DNA of 51,515 nucleotides from contig JAMLGI010000013.1 of the NCBI GenBank assembly GCA_023958085.1, forward strand, positions 1 through 51,515, read 5' to 3'. The translations under genes were made by a program, and so were the position numbers. Below the pieces are notes generated by a model. The model had not been told where the DNA came from. It worked only from the letters and a program-made list of their open reading frames with translations, and ran no database searches. Positions 3,516 to 39,264 of the stretch are shown here, piece after piece. Source of the DNA: Solirubrobacterales bacterium. GTDB taxonomy: Bacteria > Actinomycetota > Thermoleophilia > Solirubrobacterales > 70-9. How positions within the stretch are numbered: the first letter of the stretch is position 1; every line of letters begins with the position of its first letter.

Positions 3516-6704
<3,189 letters not shown>

Positions 6705-16883: not shown

Positions 16884-17575
16884 TGTTCGACGACCTGAAC
16901 ATCACCCTCACCGTCCTGCTGTTCCTCTGGTGTTTCGGGCTCGGGGCGATCGAGATCGAGATCGAGGGAGGCTACGGCTGGGCCGAACGGCTACCCACCT
17001 GGTATCTGAAGCGAGGCCGTACCGGACGGATCTACGGCTGGTTCATGGGCCACCGGCCCCTGACCGGCTACCACGTTTACGCGTTCACGATCCCGCTGGT
17101 GATCCTCCACCTGCCGTTCGGGATGGGAGTCGAGTGGTCGGTTTCGGCGGAACTGGTGACCATCGGCCGCTACTTCCTGCTGGCGGTGATCTGGGACTAC
17201 TGCTGGTTCGTGCTCAACCCGGCCTACACGGTGAAGCGGTTCCACCGGGGCAACGTGTGGTGGTTCGAGGTTCCGTGGATCTGGCGATTTCCGCTGGACT
17301 ACTACGCCGGTGTTCTGGTTTCGATCGTCCTGGCCGGTCTGGCTGCCTGGTCCGCCGCCGCGGGCGGACCCCTGTTCGAGCATCTCTGGCTGGTCGCCGG
17401 ACTGATCCTGCTGACCGGACTGACCGTGATCCTCGCCCCGCTCTACCACCGCTGGTACCGCCACATGCGCCGGGCGGACGCGGACGACCGCGCAATCACC
17501 GAAAAGTACGGCCCGCCGGCCCCGGAGGAGGTCTGGTCGGGCGGGATCCCGGACCTGCCCCCACTGGAACGGTAG
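16883..17575 (+). CDS. integral membrane protein of unknown function
   Basis: 230 residues from ATG 16883 (TGATG overlap with the deacetylase stop). About six hydrophobic segments: TLTVLLFLWCFGLGAI, YHVYAFTIPLVILHLPFG, LVTIGRYFLLAVIWDYCWFVLNP, YYAGVLVSIVLAGLAAW, LFEHLWLVAGLILLTGLTVILAP. The C-terminus is a charged soluble tail (RADADDRAITEKYGPPAP). I recognise no named family. The last ~275 bases of the gene are duplicated 2.2 kb downstream, at 19491. Conserved aromatic-rich WDYCWFVLNPAYTVKRF may face a lipid or glycan substrate, but this is a guess. Confidence 0.82.
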   Translation: MFDDLNITLTVLLFLWCFGLGAIEIEIEGGYGWAERLPTWYLKRGRTGRIYGWFMGHRPLTGYHVYAFTIPLVILHLPFGMGVEWSVSAELVTIGRYFLLAVIWDYCWFVLNPAYTVKRFHRGNVWWFEVPWIWRFPLDYYAGVLVSIVLAGLAAWSAAAGGPLFEHLWLVAGLILLTGLTVILAPLYHRWYRHMRRADADDRAITEKYGPPAPEEVWSGGIPDLPPLER

Positions 17576-17668
17576 CGCCCAAAGGGGTAAAGGATCCGAA
17601 AAGCGCGGGCGGCCCTCTAGCGCGAGCCGGGGTCAGGGCCAATCCGGAGATTGAAGTGAACGCCGCCG
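17299..17668 (+). repeat. 370-bp direct repeat, copy 1 (3' end of membrane-protein gene plus downstream DNA)
   Basis: Bases 17299-17668 reappear at 19491-19859 with roughly 14 differences and one 1-nt gap, about 96% identity by eye. The repeat begins inside the membrane-protein gene (YYAGVLV...) and runs ~93 bp past its stop, ending in CGCCGCCG. Copy 1 keeps the intact reading frame. The interval between the copies contains only hipBA and its promoter. Confidence 0.92.
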
Positions 17669-17710
17669 ACCACGCCCGGTAGCCCAGCCCCGGATAAGTA
17701 GAGGTGGAAA

Positions 17711-17807: not shown

Positions 17808-18104
17808 ATGGCGATCCGCCCGGACATGAGCGACCACGCCATCCTGCGCGAGATCGGCGATCGGATCAAGGACCATCGGCTCGAACAGGATGTGAGCCAG
17901 CGTGGCCTGGCCGGAAAGGCAGGGGTTTCCCTCAGCACCCTGGAGCGAGTGGAAGCGGGAGCGGGGTCGAGCATGGTCTCGGTCGTGCGGATCCTGCGTG
18001 CACTCGGCCTCGCCGGCAATCTGGATGAGCTTGTTCCGGAACCGCTGCCATCCCCGCTGGCCAGGCTCAAGGCCAGCGGCAGGAAACGGCAGAGGGCTTC
18101 CTGA
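17808..18104 (+). CDS. hipB: HipB-type XRE antitoxin/repressor
   Basis: 98 residues from ATG 17808; ATG 17826 is an alternative. A helix-turn-helix of the Cro/XRE type spans residues ~13-70: IGDRIKDHRLEQDVSQRGLAGKAGVSLSTLERVEAG, then SSMVSVVRILRALGLAGNLDELVPE. A basic tail (LKASGRKRQRAS) follows. As in other hipBA pairs it should bind the operator and inhibit HipA. The local DNA upstream is AT-richer than the surroundings. It overlaps hipA by TGATG. Confidence 0.9.
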   Translation: MAIRPDMSDHAILREIGDRIKDHRLEQDVSQRGLAGKAGVSLSTLERVEAGAGSSMVSVVRILRALGLAGNLDELVPEPLPSPLARLKASGRKRQRAS

Positions 18105-19390
18105 TGAACCTGGTTCAGGTCAAGATCTGGAACTTTGACGTCGGAACCCTTTTGGTGGAGGGTGACCGTTCGATCTTCCAGTACGAGCCGGATTTCGTGT
18201 CGCGCGGGTTGGAACTTTCACCGTTGATGATGCCGCTGACCAAGACTCCCCGGTCATTCCGGGTGCCGGACCATTTTCGAACTCTGCCCGGGCTGCTTGC
18301 GGACTCGCTCCCGGATCGCTTCGGCAACGCCCTGATCGACGCCTGGATTGCCAGCCGGGGTATCAGTCGCGCTGATTTCACCCCTGCCGATCGACTCAGC
18401 TATGTAGGTAGCCGCGGCATGGGCGCACTCGAGTTCAAGCCGGCGAACCATCCCGGATCGGGCAGACGTGATCACGCCATTGACCTGGGGACGATGGTCG
18501 AACTTGCCGGGCTTGCCCTCAACCAGCGGGAGGCCTTTGTGACCGATATCCAGGGTTCGAAGGAGCAGGCGGTAAAGGACATCCTCAGCATCGGTACCTC
18601 GGCCGGCGGGGCTCGGGCAAAAGCCGTGATCGCCTTCAACGAAAAGACCGGCCAGATCAGGTCCGGGCAGATCGATGCCGGACCCGACTTCGAGCAGTAC
18701 CTGCTGAAGCTCGACGGGGTGAGCGAATCGAGCCGTGAGAGCCTGGGTGAGGGACAGGGTTTCGGGCGGATCGAGTACGCGTATCACCTGATGGCCCTTG
18801 AGGCCGGGGTCGAGATGACCCCTTCCCGTCTGCTGGAGGAGGGCGGACGAGCTCATTTCATGACCCGACGGTTCGATCGAAGTGCCGAGGGCAAGCTTCA
18901 CATACAGACGCTGTCCGCCCTGGAACACCTCGATTTCAACCTTTCCTACCACTGGGAGGGTGCGTTCACCGCGGCCAGAAGCCTGAACCTGTCTCCCGGT
19001 GACCTGGAACAGATGTTCCTCAGGGCAATGTTCAATGCCGCTTTCCGGAACCAGGACGACCATGTGAAAAACATGAGCTTCATCATGGATCGAGATGGCA
19101 CCTGGAGTCTCGCACCGGCCTACGACCTGATTTACGCGCATAACCCTGAGGGCAGGTTCACCCGCACCCACCAGATGAGCGTGAACGGTGAGCGGGACGG
19201 TCCCGACTTCGATGACTTCAGGGAGATGGCCAAGACGGTCTCGCTCGATCGCGGGATCGCCACCCGTTCACTCGAACGGATTCGGGCGGCGGCGGCTAAA
19301 TGGCCGCAGTTCGCAGAAGAAGCCGGAATCGACGAGAGCATCACCCGGCGGATCGAGGCGGAATTCCGGAGCCTTCGGGCCGGCAACTGA
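18104..19390 (+). CDS. hipA: HipA-type serine/threonine kinase toxin
   Basis: 428 residues, near the E. coli HipA length. The N-terminal subdomain (VKIWNFDVGTLLVEG, LPGLLADSLPDRFGN) and the HipA core are recognisable: GTSAGGARAKAVIAF, YLLKLDG, RIEYAYHLMALEAG, HFMTRRFDR, then the catalytic/Mg stretch FRNQDDHVKNMSF and LAPAYDLIY. HipA-type kinases phosphorylate glutamyl-tRNA synthetase in E. coli, causing dormancy; the target here is not shown. All catalytic residues I can place are present. The gene lies between two copies of a host-derived direct repeat, so the pair probably arrived as an insertion. Confidence 0.93.
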   Translation: MNLVQVKIWNFDVGTLLVEGDRSIFQYEPDFVSRGLELSPLMMPLTKTPRSFRVPDHFRTLPGLLADSLPDRFGNALIDAWIASRGISRADFTPADRLSYVGSRGMGALEFKPANHPGSGRRDHAIDLGTMVELAGLALNQREAFVTDIQGSKEQAVKDILSIGTSAGGARAKAVIAFNEKTGQIRSGQIDAGPDFEQYLLKLDGVSESSRESLGEGQGFGRIEYAYHLMALEAGVEMTPSRLLEEGGRAHFMTRRFDRSAEGKLHIQTLSALEHLDFNLSYHWEGAFTAARSLNLSPGDLEQMFLRAMFNAAFRNQDDHVKNMSFIMDRDGTWSLAPAYDLIYAHNPEGRFTRTHQMSVNGERDGPDFDDFREMAKTVSLDRGIATRSLERIRAAAAKWPQFAEEAGIDESITRRIEAEFRSLRAGN

Positions 19391-19490: not shown

Positions 19491-19859
19491 CTACTACGCC
19501 GGTGTTCTGGTTTCGATCGTCCTGGCCGGTCTGGCTGCCTGGTCCGCCGCCGCGAGCGGACCCCTGTTCGAGCATCTCTGGCTGGTCGCCGGACTGATCC
19601 TGCTGACCGGACTGACCGTGATCCTCGCCCCGTTCTACCACCGCTGGTACCGCCACATGCGCCGGGCGGACGCGGACGACCGCGCAATCACCGAAAAGTA
19701 CGGCCCACCGGCCCCGGAAGAGGTCTGGTCCGGCGGGATCCCGGACCTGCCCCCACTGGATCGGGACGGCCCAAAGGGTGAAGGATCCGAAAAGCGCGAG
19801 CGGCCCTCTAGCGCGAATCGGGGTCAGGGCCAATCCGGAGATTGAAGTGAACGCCGCCG
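19491..19859 (+). repeat. direct repeat, copy 2, carrying a broken 3' fragment of the membrane-protein gene
   Basis: About 96% identical to 17299-17668. It encodes the last ~90 residues of the membrane protein (YYAGVLVSIVLAGLAAWSAAA...IPDLPPLD) with no start and with the stop codon region altered, so the frame reads on to 19845. The 5' end of the gene is absent, so this is a gene fragment, not a second gene. Confidence 0.9.
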
Positions 19860-20961: not shown

Positions 20962-21267
20962 TTACCTGCGGTAGGCGCGGCCACGCGGGCGGATCGCTCG
21001 AACGTCCAGCACCCGATCGGTGTCCCTGCGAGTGAAGATGATTCGCCACTCACCGACCCGAAGCCGCCAAAGCCGATCGGGGCCGCGTAACCGTTTCACG
21101 TCACCTTCCGGCAGGGCACCGATCCCGATCTGGATTCTCTCCTGGTCTTTCCGGCCGAGACGTTTCAGCGCTTTGAGTGCGGCGGGGCGAACCTCGATTC
21201 GCCACGGGGCCGGATCACTCAGCGGCCAGCCCCGCCAGAGCCTCGGACCACGGGATGCCCCGCTCAC
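20962..21267 (-). CDS. RelE/ParE-type toxin
   Basis: The core PAPWRIEVRPAALKALKRLGRKDQERIQIGIGALPEGDVKRLRGPDRLWRLRVGEWRIIFTRRDTDRVLDVRAIRPRGRAYRR is a full RelE-fold mRNA interferase: two N-terminal helices, then LRGPDRLWRLRVGEWRIIF and the basic end. The first ATG (21267) overlaps the antitoxin by 53 nt. A CTG near 21222 overlapping the antitoxin stop is equally possible, so the first ~15 residues are uncertain. The protein would cleave mRNA at the ribosome when freed of its antitoxin. Confidence 0.88.
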   Translation of the reverse strand: MSGASRGPRLWRGWPLSDPAPWRIEVRPAALKALKRLGRKDQERIQIGIGALPEGDVKRLRGPDRLWRLRVGEWRIIFTRRDTDRVLDVRAIRPRGRAYRR

Positions 21268-21442
21268 TTGCCGCCGCCTCGGCTGCGGCCCGATCGGCCT
21301 CGGTCAACTCTTCATCATCGATCGGGGCAGCATCGAGCTTGGCGATCACGGGATCTTGTGCCCGTTCAAGCATGGTCGCCACCGCCGCCAGGGAATCCTC
21401 GGGGAGCTGATCGACCAGTCTGTGAAGCTCGGTCTTGGTCAT
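21215..21442 (-). CDS. RelB-type antitoxin of the RelE-like pair
   Basis: 75 residues from ATG 21442: MTKTELHRLVDQLPEDSLAAVATMLERAQDPVIAKLDAAPIDDEELTEADRAAAEAAASERG.. The short helical N-terminus (LHRLVDQLPEDSLAAVATML) and acidic AAPIDDEELTEAD middle are typical of antitoxins paired with RelE toxins. The start is favoured because TACTCT ends exactly 6 nt upstream; the longer frame to 21520 has no such support. It is co-transcribed with, and overlaps, the toxin gene. Confidence 0.82.
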   Translation of the reverse strand: MTKTELHRLVDQLPEDSLAAVATMLERAQDPVIAKLDAAPIDDEELTEADRAAAEAAASERGIPWSEALAGLAAE

Positions 21443-21454: not shown

Positions 21455-21505
21455 GCACCGAGAAAGCCCTGAAGCGGCAGATTTCCGGGTTCGGAGACCT
21501 TGACA

Positions 21506-21636
21506 ACCGAAGCTCCGCAAGCGCCTTTAGGCGTCTCGGGCGGGCGACCAAAGGGTTCAGGTAACCCCGAAGCGGCGGACCATTTTCCTCTGGGAGGAAA
21601 ATCTGACTGGGCGCGGGGTCAAGGCATCTCGACCAC
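21506..21636. other. conserved 131-nt element, copy 1 (possible structured RNA or attachment-type repeat)
   Basis: Lies in the 375-bp gap between the antitoxin and the RCC1 gene. It aligns with 24420-24550 in the same orientation, roughly 70% identity, with near-identical blocks such as ACCGAAGCTC at the start, AAGGGTTCAGGTA in the middle, CTGACTGG and CTCGACCAC at the end. A 9-bp stem (21582-21590 with 21594-21602, loop TGG) is kept in the other copy through two compensatory pair changes. I match it to no known riboswitch. The remaining gap (21637-21817) shows nothing I can name. Confidence 0.55.
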
Positions 21637-21817
21637 GATCGCATCTGTGACCTCTTCAGGGTGATACCTTGCCGCCGTTGCGCTAGCGTAAAGTTGACGC
21701 TCTTGGTCCCAGCAGACGTCACCCGACCGGGGCGGCAGAAGAATGGCTTCCAGGATTCTGAACCGATTGACGAATACCTCACCCGGGGCTGATCTCAGGA
21801 TTCCCGATGCTGATAGG

Positions 21818-24010
21818 TCAGAGTGGCTCTCGAACTACCCGGCCCCAGCACCAAACATGATTCGCCGAGTCGACTGCGCAAGTTTGACCGCCTCCCGCGC
21901 TTAGAGTCTTGAACGTACCACTTGGGGGGTCAGCCGCGCCAAAACCGCTTCTCCCCCAACACACGATCGTGCCGTCCACTCGAATACCGCAGGTATAATG
22001 ACCGTCAGCGCTCAACGTTTTGAACTCACCGGGTGGAGGGCTCGCTTGGCCATCGCTGTTCGATCCCCAACAGGCTACTGTGCCATCCGTCCTAATTCCG
22101 CAGGAATGGCTGCCGCCTGCACTAACGCTCTTGAACGTACCAACGGGAGCGATAGTCTCGCCATAATCGTCGTTTCCCCAGCAGTCCACAGTATCATTAC
22201 TCCGAATACCACAAGCGACTGCGTTACCAGTGCTCAGAGTCCTGAACGTGCCGGTAGGAGCGGACGTTTCGCCCGCGAAGTCCGAACCCCAGCATGTGAC
22301 GGTACCATCAGCCTTGATCCCGCACGTAAAAAGGCTGTCACCCGCGCTAATGTCCTTAAATGTGCCGCTAGGCGAAGCAGATAGCCCTCCAGTCTTGGTT
22401 CCCCAGCATAACGCTGTCCCGTTTGCCTTTATCCCACACGCATGGAGATATCCTGCGCTTAGGGTCTCGAATCTGTCGGCAGGAGCTACTGGTGCTCCAT
22501 ATCCCTCATCATCGTAACTCCAGCAGATAACTGTCCCAGTGGTTTTCATTAGACAAGCGGGCGAGTTAGAACTCACATCTTTGAATGTGCCTACCGGAAC
22601 AGTGGTCTGCCCAAACGAGTTATCTCCCCAACAGACAGTCTCACTATCGATCCGTATACCGCAGGCATGGCTGCCGCCGACGCTTACGCTCTTAAATGTA
22701 CTTTGAGGCGGACCGTATTCTCCATTTCGGTCCCAGCCCCAACAGCTAAGAGTGTCATCAATCTCGATACCACATGCGAACAGATCACCGGCACTAACGC
22801 TCTTGAATCGTCCTGAAGGAGGAGTCGCTCGACCAAACTCGTTGTCACCCCAGCAAACCACTCGCTCGTTGATGGTCCGGATACCGCACGAGTAGCGATC
22901 TCCGACGCTAATCGTCCTTAACGCTTCTGATGGCACTGTGCCATTCTCATATCCCCAGCATTCTGGTGTGCCGTCGGTTCTCAGCCCGCAAGCTTGGTTC
23001 GTGCCGACGCTCACTGTCTTAAACGTGCCGCTGGGCGGGATGAACTCTTCTGAATCATAGCCCCAACAGACAATCGTGTCGTCGAGACTGACGCCACACG
23101 TTTGGAGACCTCCGGCGCTCACAAGCTTGAACACACCTGCTGGCGGCGAGGCTTGTCCGTAAGAATTGGAACCCCAACAGACAACTTTGTCGTCCGACTT
23201 GAGGCCACACGTGTGCTGACGGCTAGCGCTTAGACTCTTGAAGTTTCCAGCGGGGGCCGAAGCCATCCCTGTGGCATCTACACCACTATTAGAGCCCCAG
23301 CACACAGCCGTTCCTTCGGTCCTCGCGCCACAGGTATAGCCGTCACCAGCACTCACGATCGTGAGCCGATTTGCCCGAAGATCGAAGACCCCAGAAATCG
23401 CGATGTCACCATCCATCTTGACTTTGCAGGCTTCACCATCGACCCGATCGCAGCCCGTCCACCCCTCAAAGGTGGAGTCAGAATCCGGATTGGGAACGAC
23501 GGTTACCTTGGACCCGGTGACGTAGCGGCCGTCGATGGGCTTCGGGTAGACAGTCACGGTGCCGTGGCCGTCCCCGTCCTTCCTGACGGTCAGGGCGTGA
23601 GTCAGAGCCGGAGGCGGAACGATCGGAGGGTCGGCACATGCTTTCTTGACAGCAGCCTTGGCCTTGTTAAACGAAGCTTTCGCTTTCGACTTGGCCTTCC
23701 TAGCATTCGCAAGCTTCTTTTTGGCCTTGGCTTTGGTCTTCCCGTTCGCTCTTTTCATTGCTTTTCGGGCAGCCTTCAGCTGTCTGTCGGCCTGGGCGAG
23801 CTTTTTCTGTCCCCCGGTCCGTTTTGCCTTGGCCTGCTTGCAGCGCACAGCGGTCGAAAGACCAGCCTGGCTGGCCTGACCCGCTGAAGACGCCACTAGG
23901 AGGGTGATCGGTCCACACAGCAGAACCACCAGGAACGAAACCGGCAAGCGAACATAGCGTCTCCAAGACCAACGAGACATTCCCGCTAACGCTCCCCGAT
24001 ACGCCCACAT
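21818..24010 (-). CDS. secreted RCC1-repeat (beta-propeller) protein with Lys/Ala-rich helical stalk
   Basis: 730 residues from ATG 24010, chosen for its Shine-Dalgarno (CGGAGGAAGCG). Layout: signal/anchor (RLPVSFLVVLLCGPITLLVASSAG), a Lys/Ala-rich coiled segment of ~65 residues (KKLAQADRQLKAARKAMKRA...FNKAKAAVKKA), a bacterial surface repeat domain (GTVTVYP..., FEGWTGCDRVDG...VKMDGDIAISGVFD), then 14 RCC1-type repeats each with a CGI..DGTV.CWG motif (one reads CWS). Each repeat has two cysteines. Such propellers bind proteins or matrix; the partner is unknown. G+C is visibly lower (about half) than in flanking genes, a sign of transfer or relaxed codon use. It is flanked by two copies of the 131-nt element. 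Confidence 0.88.
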   Translation of the reverse strand: MWAYRGALAGMSRWSWRRYVRLPVSFLVVLLCGPITLLVASSAGQASQAGLSTAVRCKQAKAKRTGGQKKLAQADRQLKAARKAMKRANGKTKAKAKKKLANARKAKSKAKASFNKAKAAVKKACADPPIVPPPALTHALTVRKDGDGHGTVTVYPKPIDGRYVTGSKVTVVPNPDSDSTFEGWTGCDRVDGEACKVKMDGDIAISGVFDLRANRLTIVSAGDGYTCGARTEGTAVCWGSNSGVDATGMASAPAGNFKSLSASRQHTCGLKSDDKVVCWGSNSYGQASPPAGVFKLVSAGGLQTCGVSLDDTIVCWGYDSEEFIPPSGTFKTVSVGTNQACGLRTDGTPECWGYENGTVPSEALRTISVGDRYSCGIRTINERVVCWGDNEFGRATPPSGRFKSVSAGDLFACGIEIDDTLSCWGWDRNGEYGPPQSTFKSVSVGGSHACGIRIDSETVCWGDNSFGQTTVPVGTFKDVSSNSPACLMKTTGTVICWSYDDEGYGAPVAPADRFETLSAGYLHACGIKANGTALCWGTKTGGLSASPSGTFKDISAGDSLFTCGIKADGTVTCWGSDFAGETSAPTGTFRTLSTGNAVACGIRSNDTVDCWGNDDYGETIAPVGTFKSVSAGGSHSCGIRTDGTVACWGSNSDGQASPPPGEFKTLSADGHYTCGIRVDGTIVCWGRSGFGAADPPSGTFKTLSAGGGQTCAVDSANHVWCWGRVVREPL

Positions 24011-24164
24011 CGCTTCCTCCGTCACCTCGTGTTTTCGGGTACCGAAGCGGAGTCCGGCCACCGGACCCAGCCGCAATCACCTGGAGCATAACACTGGCAC
24101 GAGGGGCGGTGAAATCAGAGGAATCTGACACGCCGAACCCAATACTGCATCGCATCTAGGAACT

Positions 24165-24197
24165 GAATAGTGCGCCCCCGGAGGTGGCGCACTATTC
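24165..24197. other. perfect 12-bp inverted repeat upstream of the RCC1 gene
   Basis: GAATAGTGCGCC (24165-24176) and GGCGCACTATTC (24186-24197) enclose a 9-nt loop. It lies ~155 bp upstream of the RCC1 start. It has no T-tract, so an operator or structured leader fits better than a terminator. Confidence 0.55.
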
Positions 24198-24419
24198 TGG
24201 CGGAACTCGTTTCGGGAAAATCGAGCGAGGGAGGCGGCAGGAGGTGGGGTCGCTGTTTGAACGCTCACCAAATGTTCACGCGGACCTGTCCCATTTGGGA
24301 CACCTGTCGAAAGTCCCAGAGTTGTGCAAAGGAAGCCTCGCAGCCCTCCCCGGTCCCGGCATCGGCAAGATGGGGATACCCCCGTGGCCCCTTGCCCTGA
24401 ATTGGAGCGATCGGTGGAA

Positions 24420-24550
24420 ACCGAAGCTCTGTAAGCGATCGTAAGCCGCTTCGGCAGGTGCCCGAAGGGTCCAGGTACCACCGAAACGGCGAACGGTTTC
24501 CCTCGGGGAGAGAAACTTGACTGCTGGCGGGGTCGCAGCTCCTCGACCAC
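24420..24550. other. conserved 131-nt element, copy 2
   Basis: Partner of 21506-21636. It additionally allows a 7-bp stem CCGAAGC (24421-24427) with GCTTCGG (24448-24454), enclosed by GGTGG/CCACC, and the conserved hairpin GTTTC-c-CTC (24496-24504) with GAG-a-GAAAC (24508-24516). It lies upstream of the RCC1 gene on the minus strand and of the 24869 gene on the plus strand, so orientation as RNA is undecided. Confidence 0.55.
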
Positions 24551-24563
24551 TCAAAAAGTCGGG

Positions 24564-24824
24564 TCAGGTGTCCAGCGCCCCGGCATCCCGAAGGATCAAG
24601 GCAGCCTCACGATGGAGCTCAGCTTCCGTCGGGGTGATGGAATGAGCGATCGGTCCGGCGTTGGGGCCGCTCACGATTTTTGGCAGAGCCCAGACTGGAT
24701 GTGCGTCGGATGGTTCCGTGAAAAAAATCATCGGGATCACCAGTCGCGCGGCCGGAAAGCGGGATGGGCCGACATGAGGTGGCAACGCCGTCACTTCTTG
24801 ACTCGCTGCCACCTCAGACCCCAC
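24564..24824 (-). CDS. possible small hypothetical protein
   Basis: 86-residue frame (or 55 residues from ATG 24731). The second half (HSITPTEAELHREAALILRDAGALDT) has a plausible amphipathic helix and codon use like real genes nearby. There is no clear Shine-Dalgarno and I recognise no family. It overlaps nothing else. It may be a remnant of a longer gene. Confidence 0.3.
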   Translation of the reverse strand: MGSEVAASQEVTALPPHVGPSRFPAARLVIPMIFFTEPSDAHPVWALPKIVSGPNAGPIAHSITPTEAELHREAALILRDAGALDT

Positions 24825-24868: not shown

Positions 24869-25309
24869 ATGAAACTCCCCGAAAGTGTGAAACCGAAGCT
24901 GCGATCCACCCCGGCCGCCCCACCATTCAACCGGGCCAAAGGCTGGAAGCTCGACCCGCATAACGACCAGCGCATCCGCTGGTGGGACGGCCGCCGGTGG
25001 GGCTCTGCCGTCGCAGACGCTGGCGACGATGCGGAAACCTACGCGGCCGCTGAGCTTGGGGAGAACGTCGAGCTTCCCGAACCACCGAACGTCGGGCCGA
25101 CCACCAGGGCCGCCAGCCCGGACCCGGACAGCAAGATCACGTCGGCTGGGTGGACCACCGCGTTTCTCATCCCAATCGTCGGGTTCTTCGTTGGGGTGGT
25201 GGTCTTGACTCGCGGGCGAACCGAGGGGATCGGGATCATGGTCACCGCGGTCATCATGGCGGTCGTATGGTTTTACGTTCTGTCAGATCTGATGGTTGTG
25301 TCCGGGTGA
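24869..25309 (+). CDS. membrane protein with DUF2510-like WWDG motif
   Basis: 146 residues from ATG 24869 with a strong AGGAGGAA Shine-Dalgarno. A cytoplasmic N-terminal part carries GWKLDPHNDQRIRWWDGRRWGSAV, a variant of the GWYxDP...RWWDGxxW repeat of actinobacterial DUF2510 proteins. Two membrane segments follow (TTAFLIPIVGFFVGVVVL and GIMVTAVIMAVVWFYVLSDLM). Proteins of this type usually accompany envelope or secretion functions, but the role of the motif is unknown. It is a single gene. Confidence 0.8.
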   Translation: MKLPESVKPKLRSTPAAPPFNRAKGWKLDPHNDQRIRWWDGRRWGSAVADAGDDAETYAAAELGENVELPEPPNVGPTTRAASPDPDSKITSAGWTTAFLIPIVGFFVGVVVLTRGRTEGIGIMVTAVIMAVVWFYVLSDLMVVSG

Positions 25310-25622
25310 GCTGCGGGCTCCTGGCCTAGCGCAAAAACCCCGCCACCGAATGAACGGTGACGGGACCCCTGGCAACGCCGTCACTCTTGGACCGGCTTTA
25401 GCGATACAGCGGCGACGTGTCCCGGTGGTCTCGATCATCGGCTCTCCTGGACATCGTGGCCGAGCAGGTGGACGGGGCTGCAACGACCCAGTGAACAGGC
25501 GGTCCGGGGTGGCGCTCAAACCCTTGTCAGAAAACCGGGTCGCGCCAAGGCCTTGTCACTTCCCTTGTCACCCTGCGATTTTCGACGGTCGGTGAAGTGG
25601 AAGATTTGGCTCTGTGAGCGGA
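25310..25622. other. gap without a recognised gene
   Basis: About 310 bases between the 24869 gene and the tRNA. All frames are short or look like shadows. A 15-nt string (GGCAACGCCGTCACT) occurs both here (~25372) and at ~24781, which may mark an old duplication. I see nothing else. Confidence 0.4.
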
Positions 25623-25696
25623 TACCGGGGGAGGGACTTGAACCCCCGACACGCGGATTATGATTCCGCTGCTCTAACCAGCTGAGCTACCCCGGC
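25623..25696 (-). tRNA. tRNA with CAT anticodon (Met, or Ile2 if lysidine-modified)
   Basis: 74 nt. Acceptor stem GCCGGGG pairs with CCCCGGT, then discriminator A. D-arm AGCTCAGCTGGTTAGAGC, anticodon stem GCGGA/TCCGC with loop ATCATAA (anticodon CAT) and T-arm GGGGGTTCAAGTCCCTCC are canonical. No encoded CCA. G1-U72 pairing is a wobble; an initiator tRNA would have a 1-72 mismatch and three G-C pairs in the anticodon stem, so this is elongator Met or Ile2. The bases alone do not separate these two. Confidence 0.95.
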
Positions 25697-38755: not shown

Positions 38756-38993
38756 GGGGGTCGAATCGTACCGGGTCCGGGGACAGACTCCGGGAAGTCT
38801 GCGGAGAACTGCGCAGTCCGGATCCGATCACCGTGACCGGCCATCCGATCCAGCAATAGCTGCTAGGTTGATCGCAGGCTCTGGCCTGTACGTGATCCGC
38901 CTCATAATTTGACCCAACATCAACGGCACGGGAGTCGATTTCTCCAGCCCCTGCGGGCCAGAGATAGACACCCACCTTTTTCACAAGGGATCA

Positions 38994-39062
38994 ATGCCGG
39001 AGGAGGAAACGGCAGGCCGGAGCCACCCTTCGTCCGCTGACGGCGTCAACGACCGAAAATGA
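38994..39062 (+). CDS. possible 22-codon leader ORF
   Basis: ATG 38994 is preceded by AAGGGA, followed by 22 codons (MPEEETAGRSHPSSADGVNDRK) and TGA inside the left arm of the long inverted repeat. It could be a leader peptide whose translation opens the hairpin, or chance. No codon-run (for example repeated Cys or His codons) suggests an attenuator. Confidence 0.25.
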   Translation: MPEEETAGRSHPSSADGVNDRK

Positions 39063-39138
39063 GGACCTCACGTACCGCGCACGTACTATCGCCCCTCATT
39101 TTCGGTCGAGTCCTTGTCAGCGAACGAATGGTGGCTCC
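39019..39138. repeat. long inverted repeat (45-bp arms, 29-nt loop)
   Basis: Left arm 39019-39064 (GGAGCCACC...CGACCGAAAATGAGG), right arm 39094-39138, with mismatches mainly in an 8-nt central block. The loop contains CACGTAC twice. It lies in the 500-bp gap between the copper cluster and mnmA. Candidates: a bidirectional regulatory hairpin or a small miniature-transposon-like repeat. No open frame explains it. Confidence 0.85.
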
Positions 39139-39148
39139 GGGTTGATTC

Positions 39149-39183
39149 TCGTCCGCTGACGGCGTCAACGACCGAAAATGAGG
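39149..39183 (+). repeat. third, direct copy of the inverted-repeat arm core
   Basis: 34 of the first arm's bases (TCGTCCGCTGACGGCG through AAAATGAGG) recur unchanged 119 bp downstream, ending just after the earliest possible ATG of the mnmA frame (39178). Perfect conservation, unlike the diverged inverted copy, suggests a recent duplication. Confidence 0.88.
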
Positions 39184-39264
39184 CGCTCCCCGCGTTCCGT
39201 CCCGTCCCGCAAGGGGACATCGAGGCAGGTTCGGTTCGGCAGTTGGACCTTTAACCTGTCGGAG

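What the first reader, a model, noticed from the sequence alone, without database searches (positions are those of the whole stretch)
21506..24550. Two related 131-nt elements with covarying hairpins flank the low-GC RCC1 gene
Seen: 21506-21636 and 24420-24550 align end to end in the same orientation at about 70% identity, far from any shared protein frame (one copy has stops in every frame I compared). The central hairpin is kept in both: pair 1 is A-T in one and G-C in the other, pair 5 is T-A versus C-G, with one mismatch in copy 2. Inference: a structured RNA or a recombination/attachment element not matching any riboswitch I know. The enclosed gene has visibly lower G+C, consistent with a mobile cassette.
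Basis: partly seen in the sequence, partly recalled or inferred. Interest (0 to 1): 0.68.

Follow-up and report, generated by a model that had tools for sequence, protein, structure and literature searches.

The report
Two-copy noncoding repeat around RCC1 gene
A 132-letter noncoding sequence really occurs twice, on either side of an apparently foreign gene, but no other copy was found in several hundred related genomes or in the virus and plasmid sets searched, so it is most likely a local repeat left by the arrival of that gene and not a new class of RNA.

Summary
Window 21505-21636 and 24419-24550 are homologous end to end in the same orientation: 132 nt, 96 identical, no gaps, sharp borders, E about 2e-15 in the whole genome. 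They bracket an RCC1-repeat gene of atypical composition (GC3 0.58; other genes 0.72-0.90).

A 9-bp hairpin survives in both copies with two double changes; all 9 pairs hold on the minus strand, 8 on the plus strand (joint chance about 0.002-0.011). Covariation over the whole element is no better than permuted substitutions.

No third copy was found in the same genome, 232 genomes of the order, a 399-genome class sample, phages, plasmids, IMG/VR pattern scans or Rfam. parDE homologues at 66-71% DNA identity lack the element upstream, so it is not a parDE leader. attC cores, target-site duplications and terminal inverted repeats are absent.

Best reading: direct repeats bordering an acquired RCC1 module in an accessory strip beside tRNA-Met, where hipBA and a DUF2510 gene are also bracketed by local direct repeats. 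A two-copy structured RNA is the main rival.

The parts
21505..21636 (-). copy 1 of the 132-nt repeat (strand given as the better-supported RNA strand)
   Evidence: 96/132 identical to copy 2, ungapped; E 2.4e-15
24419..24550 (-). copy 2 of the 132-nt repeat
   Evidence: minus-strand fold z -3.07
21582..21602 (-). central 9-bp hairpin of copy 1 (element columns 78-98)
24496..24516 (-). central 9-bp hairpin of copy 2, two double changes and one G.U against copy 1
21818..24011 (-). enclosed RCC1-repeat gene with signal-like N-terminus (start taken at the ATG behind GGAGG; the longest ORF starts at 24076)
   Evidence: Pfam RCC1_2 2.9e-71, Flg_new_2; GC3 0.58; start chosen by eye
20962..21267 (-). 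ParE-like toxin gene beside copy 1
   Evidence: PF05016 3e-06
21215..21442 (-). ParD-like antitoxin gene; DNA homology to other genomes starts at or just before its ATG and excludes copy 1
24869..25309 (+). DUF2510-like membrane protein gene beyond copy 2
   Evidence: PF10708 4.1e-05, just under cut-off
24780..24800 (+). left copy of a local direct repeat bracketing the DUF2510 gene (16-nt exact core TGGCAACGCCGTCACT)
25370..25390 (+). right copy of that repeat
17299..17668 (+). left direct repeat of the hipBA module (tail of the upstream gene plus intergenic DNA)
   Evidence: 96.2% over 370 nt
19491..19859 (+). right direct repeat of the hipBA module
25623..25696 (-). tRNA-Met (CAT) at the edge of the accessory strip; its link with the ABC gene is conserved in relatives

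Best explanation
The two 132-nt copies are the direct repeats at the borders of an acquired RCC1 module in a variable strip (about 17.7-25.6 kb) next to a conserved tRNA-Met. Shown: homology, direct orientation, sharp ends, atypical composition of the enclosed gene, absence of other copies, and two neighbouring modules (hipBA, DUF2510) that are also bracketed by local direct repeats. Inferred: the copies arose when DNA carrying a related copy recombined with the resident one (one crossover leaves repeat-cargo-repeat), or by tandem duplication followed by gene turnover. The 27% divergence then means either an old event or two copies from different lineages at the start. Either way some constraint is needed to keep 132 nt free of indels and one hairpin paired. 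The resident sequence was probably a noncoding element with a minus-strand hairpin, whose own role is not shown.
For: Ungapped 96/132 identity with abrupt ends. RCC1 GC3 0.58, other correctly framed genes 0.72-0.90. In genus relatives the ABC-tRNA-Met pair and the glycosyltransferase-membrane-gene pair are kept, but nothing matching hipA, parDE, RCC1 or DUF2510 was found beside them. hipBA lies between 370-nt repeats at 96% and the DUF2510 gene between 21-nt repeats at 95%; the 16-nt core of the latter occurs only twice in the genome. The element is found only here in the genome and order. parDE homologues in four genomes lack it.
Against: No integrase was found on this contig; PF00589 hits lie on other contigs and PF00239 gave none. 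No target-site duplication. The repeats of the three modules share no sequence, so a common mechanism is an inference. At 73% identity homologous recombination between the copies would be inefficient today. No relative with an empty site holding a single copy was found.
Confidence: 0.42

Rival explanations
1. A structured RNA encoded on the minus strand, present twice: either a small RNA pair or a leader-like element upstream of RCC1 and of parDE, which lie downstream on that strand.
For: The 9-bp hairpin is kept 9/9 on the minus strand with two double changes and a G.U; joint chance 0.002-0.011 under permuted substitutions. Copy 2 minus strand folds at z -3.07. A second small helix GGUCG/YGACC differs only as G-U against G-C on that strand.
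Against: Whole-alignment consensus energy not above permutation (40/300 and 102/300 reach it). The strong 10-bp stem of copy 2 is not formed in copy 1. Copy 1 minus strand z only -1.05. parDE homologues lack it. No Rfam match and no third copy.
Confidence: 0.27
2. A nonautonomous mobile element or recombination site (MITE-like, attC-like) that moves or exchanges the RCC1 gene.
For: Discrete length, sharp ends, direct orientation around a foreign-looking gene next to a toxin-antitoxin pair.
Against: No RYYYAAC or GTTRRRY core, no target-site duplication, no terminal inverted repeat; only two copies in 2.44 Mb; no recombinase nearby.
Confidence: 0.13
3. Remains of a duplicated protein-coding stretch (a gene tail or pseudogene).
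For: Plus frame 2: 28/43 identical codon readings, mismatches 12/8/16 by codon position, nominal p 0.0095.
Against: About 0.06 after six frames; a stop stands at the same codon in both copies; no Pfam match, no tblastn match in plasmids.
Confidence: 0.11

Closest known systems
Direct repeats bordering acquired gene modules (single-crossover or duplication scars)
   Same: same orientation, enclosing a gene of atypical composition, unique to the locus
   Different: copies 27% diverged yet ungapped, and one hairpin kept
Integron cassettes with attC sites
   Same: about 130-nt repeats in one orientation around a gene, toxin-antitoxin neighbour
   Different: no attC core boxes, no single long palindrome, no tyrosine recombinase on the contig
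Candidate structured RNAs from comparative genomics (e.g. PMC2864571, PMC6429828; titles and abstracts seen)
   Same: intergenic, hairpin with compensatory change
   Different: such motifs rest on homologues from many genomes; here only two copies in one genome, no Rfam match

Membership tests
Structured noncoding RNA family | homologues in several genomes | tested here: not met
   none in 232 order genomes and 399 class genomes
Structured noncoding RNA family | significant covariation over the structure | tested here: inconclusive
   one hairpin P 0.002-0.011, whole element not significant; only two sequences
Known Rfam family | match to a covariance model | tested here: not met
   no match at gathering; at permissive level only chance hits to human lncRNA models
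Integron attC site | RYYYAAC / GTTRRRY core boxes | tested here: not met
   none within 20 nt of or inside either copy, either strand
Integron attC site | linked integron integrase | tested here: not met
   no PF00589 match on the contig of the window
MITE / insertion-sequence derivative | target-site duplication and terminal inverted repeats | tested here: not met
MITE / insertion-sequence derivative | dispersed copies in the genome | tested here: not met
   two copies only, both at this locus
parDE leader or operator | present upstream of homologous parDE operons | tested here: not met
   DNA homology of four relatives starts at or within 20 nt of the parD ATG and excludes copy 1
Diversity-generating retroelement template/variable repeat | differences concentrated at adenines of one copy | tested here: not met
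   mismatches spread over all four bases
Direct repeats bordering an acquired module | direct orientation around a gene of foreign composition | tested here: met
Direct repeats bordering an acquired module | empty site with one copy in a relative | tested here: inconclusive
   no relative keeps this junction; neither copy nor cargo found there

The most novel reading that the evidence does not exclude
A lineage-restricted minus-strand structured RNA, duplicated around an acquired RCC1 gene, that controls or marks the RCC1 and toxin-antitoxin genes downstream of it.
Probability: 0.1. Interest if true: 0.5.

Novelty: new member of a known kind. Interest (0 to 1): 0.27.

Why it matters
If the border reading holds, it adds a case of gene accretion beside a tRNA in which three modules each carry their own direct repeats without a local integrase. 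If the RNA reading holds, it would be a very narrowly distributed structured RNA, of a sort that methods needing many homologues cannot detect.

Tried and rejected
Rfam at gathering and permissive thresholds: nothing. Weak covariance hits in the own genome and order (18-21 bits, L140-L142, L144) align in patches and were read as chance. BLAST hits L138 and L139 are 24-nt matches that read as coding. Coding origin, parDE leader, attC, MITE and retroelement readings were each tested. The membrane-gene query 16930-17682 proved to be in the wrong overlapping frame (GC3 0.51; the gene ends at 17575); it still placed the relatives' loci. A literature search for noncoding RNA motifs in Solirubrobacterales found nothing.

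Full report
Observation. The copies are 21505-21636 and 24419-24550, 132 nt each, 96 identical positions, no gap, with identity dropping to chance at once outside both borders. In the whole genome copy 2 finds copy 1 at E about 2e-15, and nothing else of weight.

Strand and structure. The central hairpin (element columns 78-98) has two pairs changed on both sides. The third changed pair is C.A on the plus strand but G.U on the minus strand, so only the minus strand keeps 9 of 9 pairs. Under permutation of the observed substitutions, a shared stem this long together with two double changes arises in 0.2-1.1% of trials on the minus strand; on the plus strand the best shared stem is ordinary. This statistic was chosen after seeing the hairpin, so it is a little optimistic. 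RNAalifold energies of the complete alignment are not better than permuted substitutions on either strand. The strong fold of copy 2 on the minus strand (z -3.07) uses a stem that copy 1 cannot form. Two sequences support one hairpin, not an RNA architecture.

Coding. Five of six frames show no significant excess of amino-acid conservation. Plus frame 2 does (p 0.0095 before correction for six frames) with mismatches 12/8/16 by codon position, but contains a stop at the same codon in both copies; the peptides match nothing in Pfam, and the one searched against plasmids found nothing.

Distribution. BLAST in 50 family and 399 class genomes, and a two-sequence covariance model in 232 order and 399 class genomes (the sets overlap), return only these two copies at a credible score. 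Phages, plasmids and four pattern scans of IMG/VR are empty.

Neighbourhood. On the minus strand copy 2 lies about 400 nt upstream of the RCC1 gene and copy 1 about 60 nt upstream of a parD-parE pair. ParE homologues at 64-69% identity occur in four other genomes of the order; the DNA similarity in them runs from the parD ATG (or up to 20 nt before it) downwards and stops short of copy 1, so the element does not travel with parDE. RCC1 homologues in the family are distant repeats, and the loci of theirs that were searched hold no match to the model. The RCC1 gene has GC3 0.58, while the other correctly framed window genes measured lie at 0.72-0.90. In genus relatives, tRNA-Met stays next to the ABC gene and the membrane gene next to the glycosyltransferase, without hipA, parDE, RCC1 or DUF2510 beside them. 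The stretch 17.7-25.6 kb is therefore an accessory strip. Two more of its modules are bracketed by their own direct repeats: hipBA by 370 nt at 96% and the DUF2510 gene by 21 nt at 95%.

Mechanism. The economical reading is that the 132-nt copies are borders of the RCC1 module, created by recombination between a resident and an incoming copy or by tandem duplication. The steps shown are the repeat, its orientation, the foreign composition and the local setting; the recombination itself is inferred. Why the copies stayed ungapped while 27% diverged, with one hairpin kept, is not explained by a plain scar and leaves the RNA reading open.

Comparison. Integron attC, MITE, retroelement-repeat and Rfam membership were tested and not met. 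The finding is a real but orphan repeat of modest interest.

Noticed in passing
window 17299-17668 and 19491-19859: A hipBA toxin-antitoxin pair (hipB 17808-18104, hipA 18104-19390) lies between 370-nt direct repeats (96% identical) that are the 3' part of the upstream membrane-protein gene and its downstream DNA.
   Followed up: partly
window 24780-24800 and 25370-25390: A 21-nt direct repeat with the exact core TGGCAACGCCGTCACT brackets the DUF2510 gene and occurs nowhere else in the genome.
   Followed up: partly
window 24164-24196: Near-perfect inverted repeat GAATAGTGCGCC...GGCGCACTATTC between copy 2 and the RCC1 gene, without a T tract.
   Followed up: no
window 38875-39027 and 39030-39188: A 6S RNA match (64.3 bits) is followed by a 40-nt sequence repeated at 95% identity 119 nt apart (39030-39069, 39149-39188).
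   Followed up: no
window 3890-4710: Long run of 9-nt periodic repeats (CCGGTN-type), as in a collagen-like protein on the minus strand.
   Followed up: no
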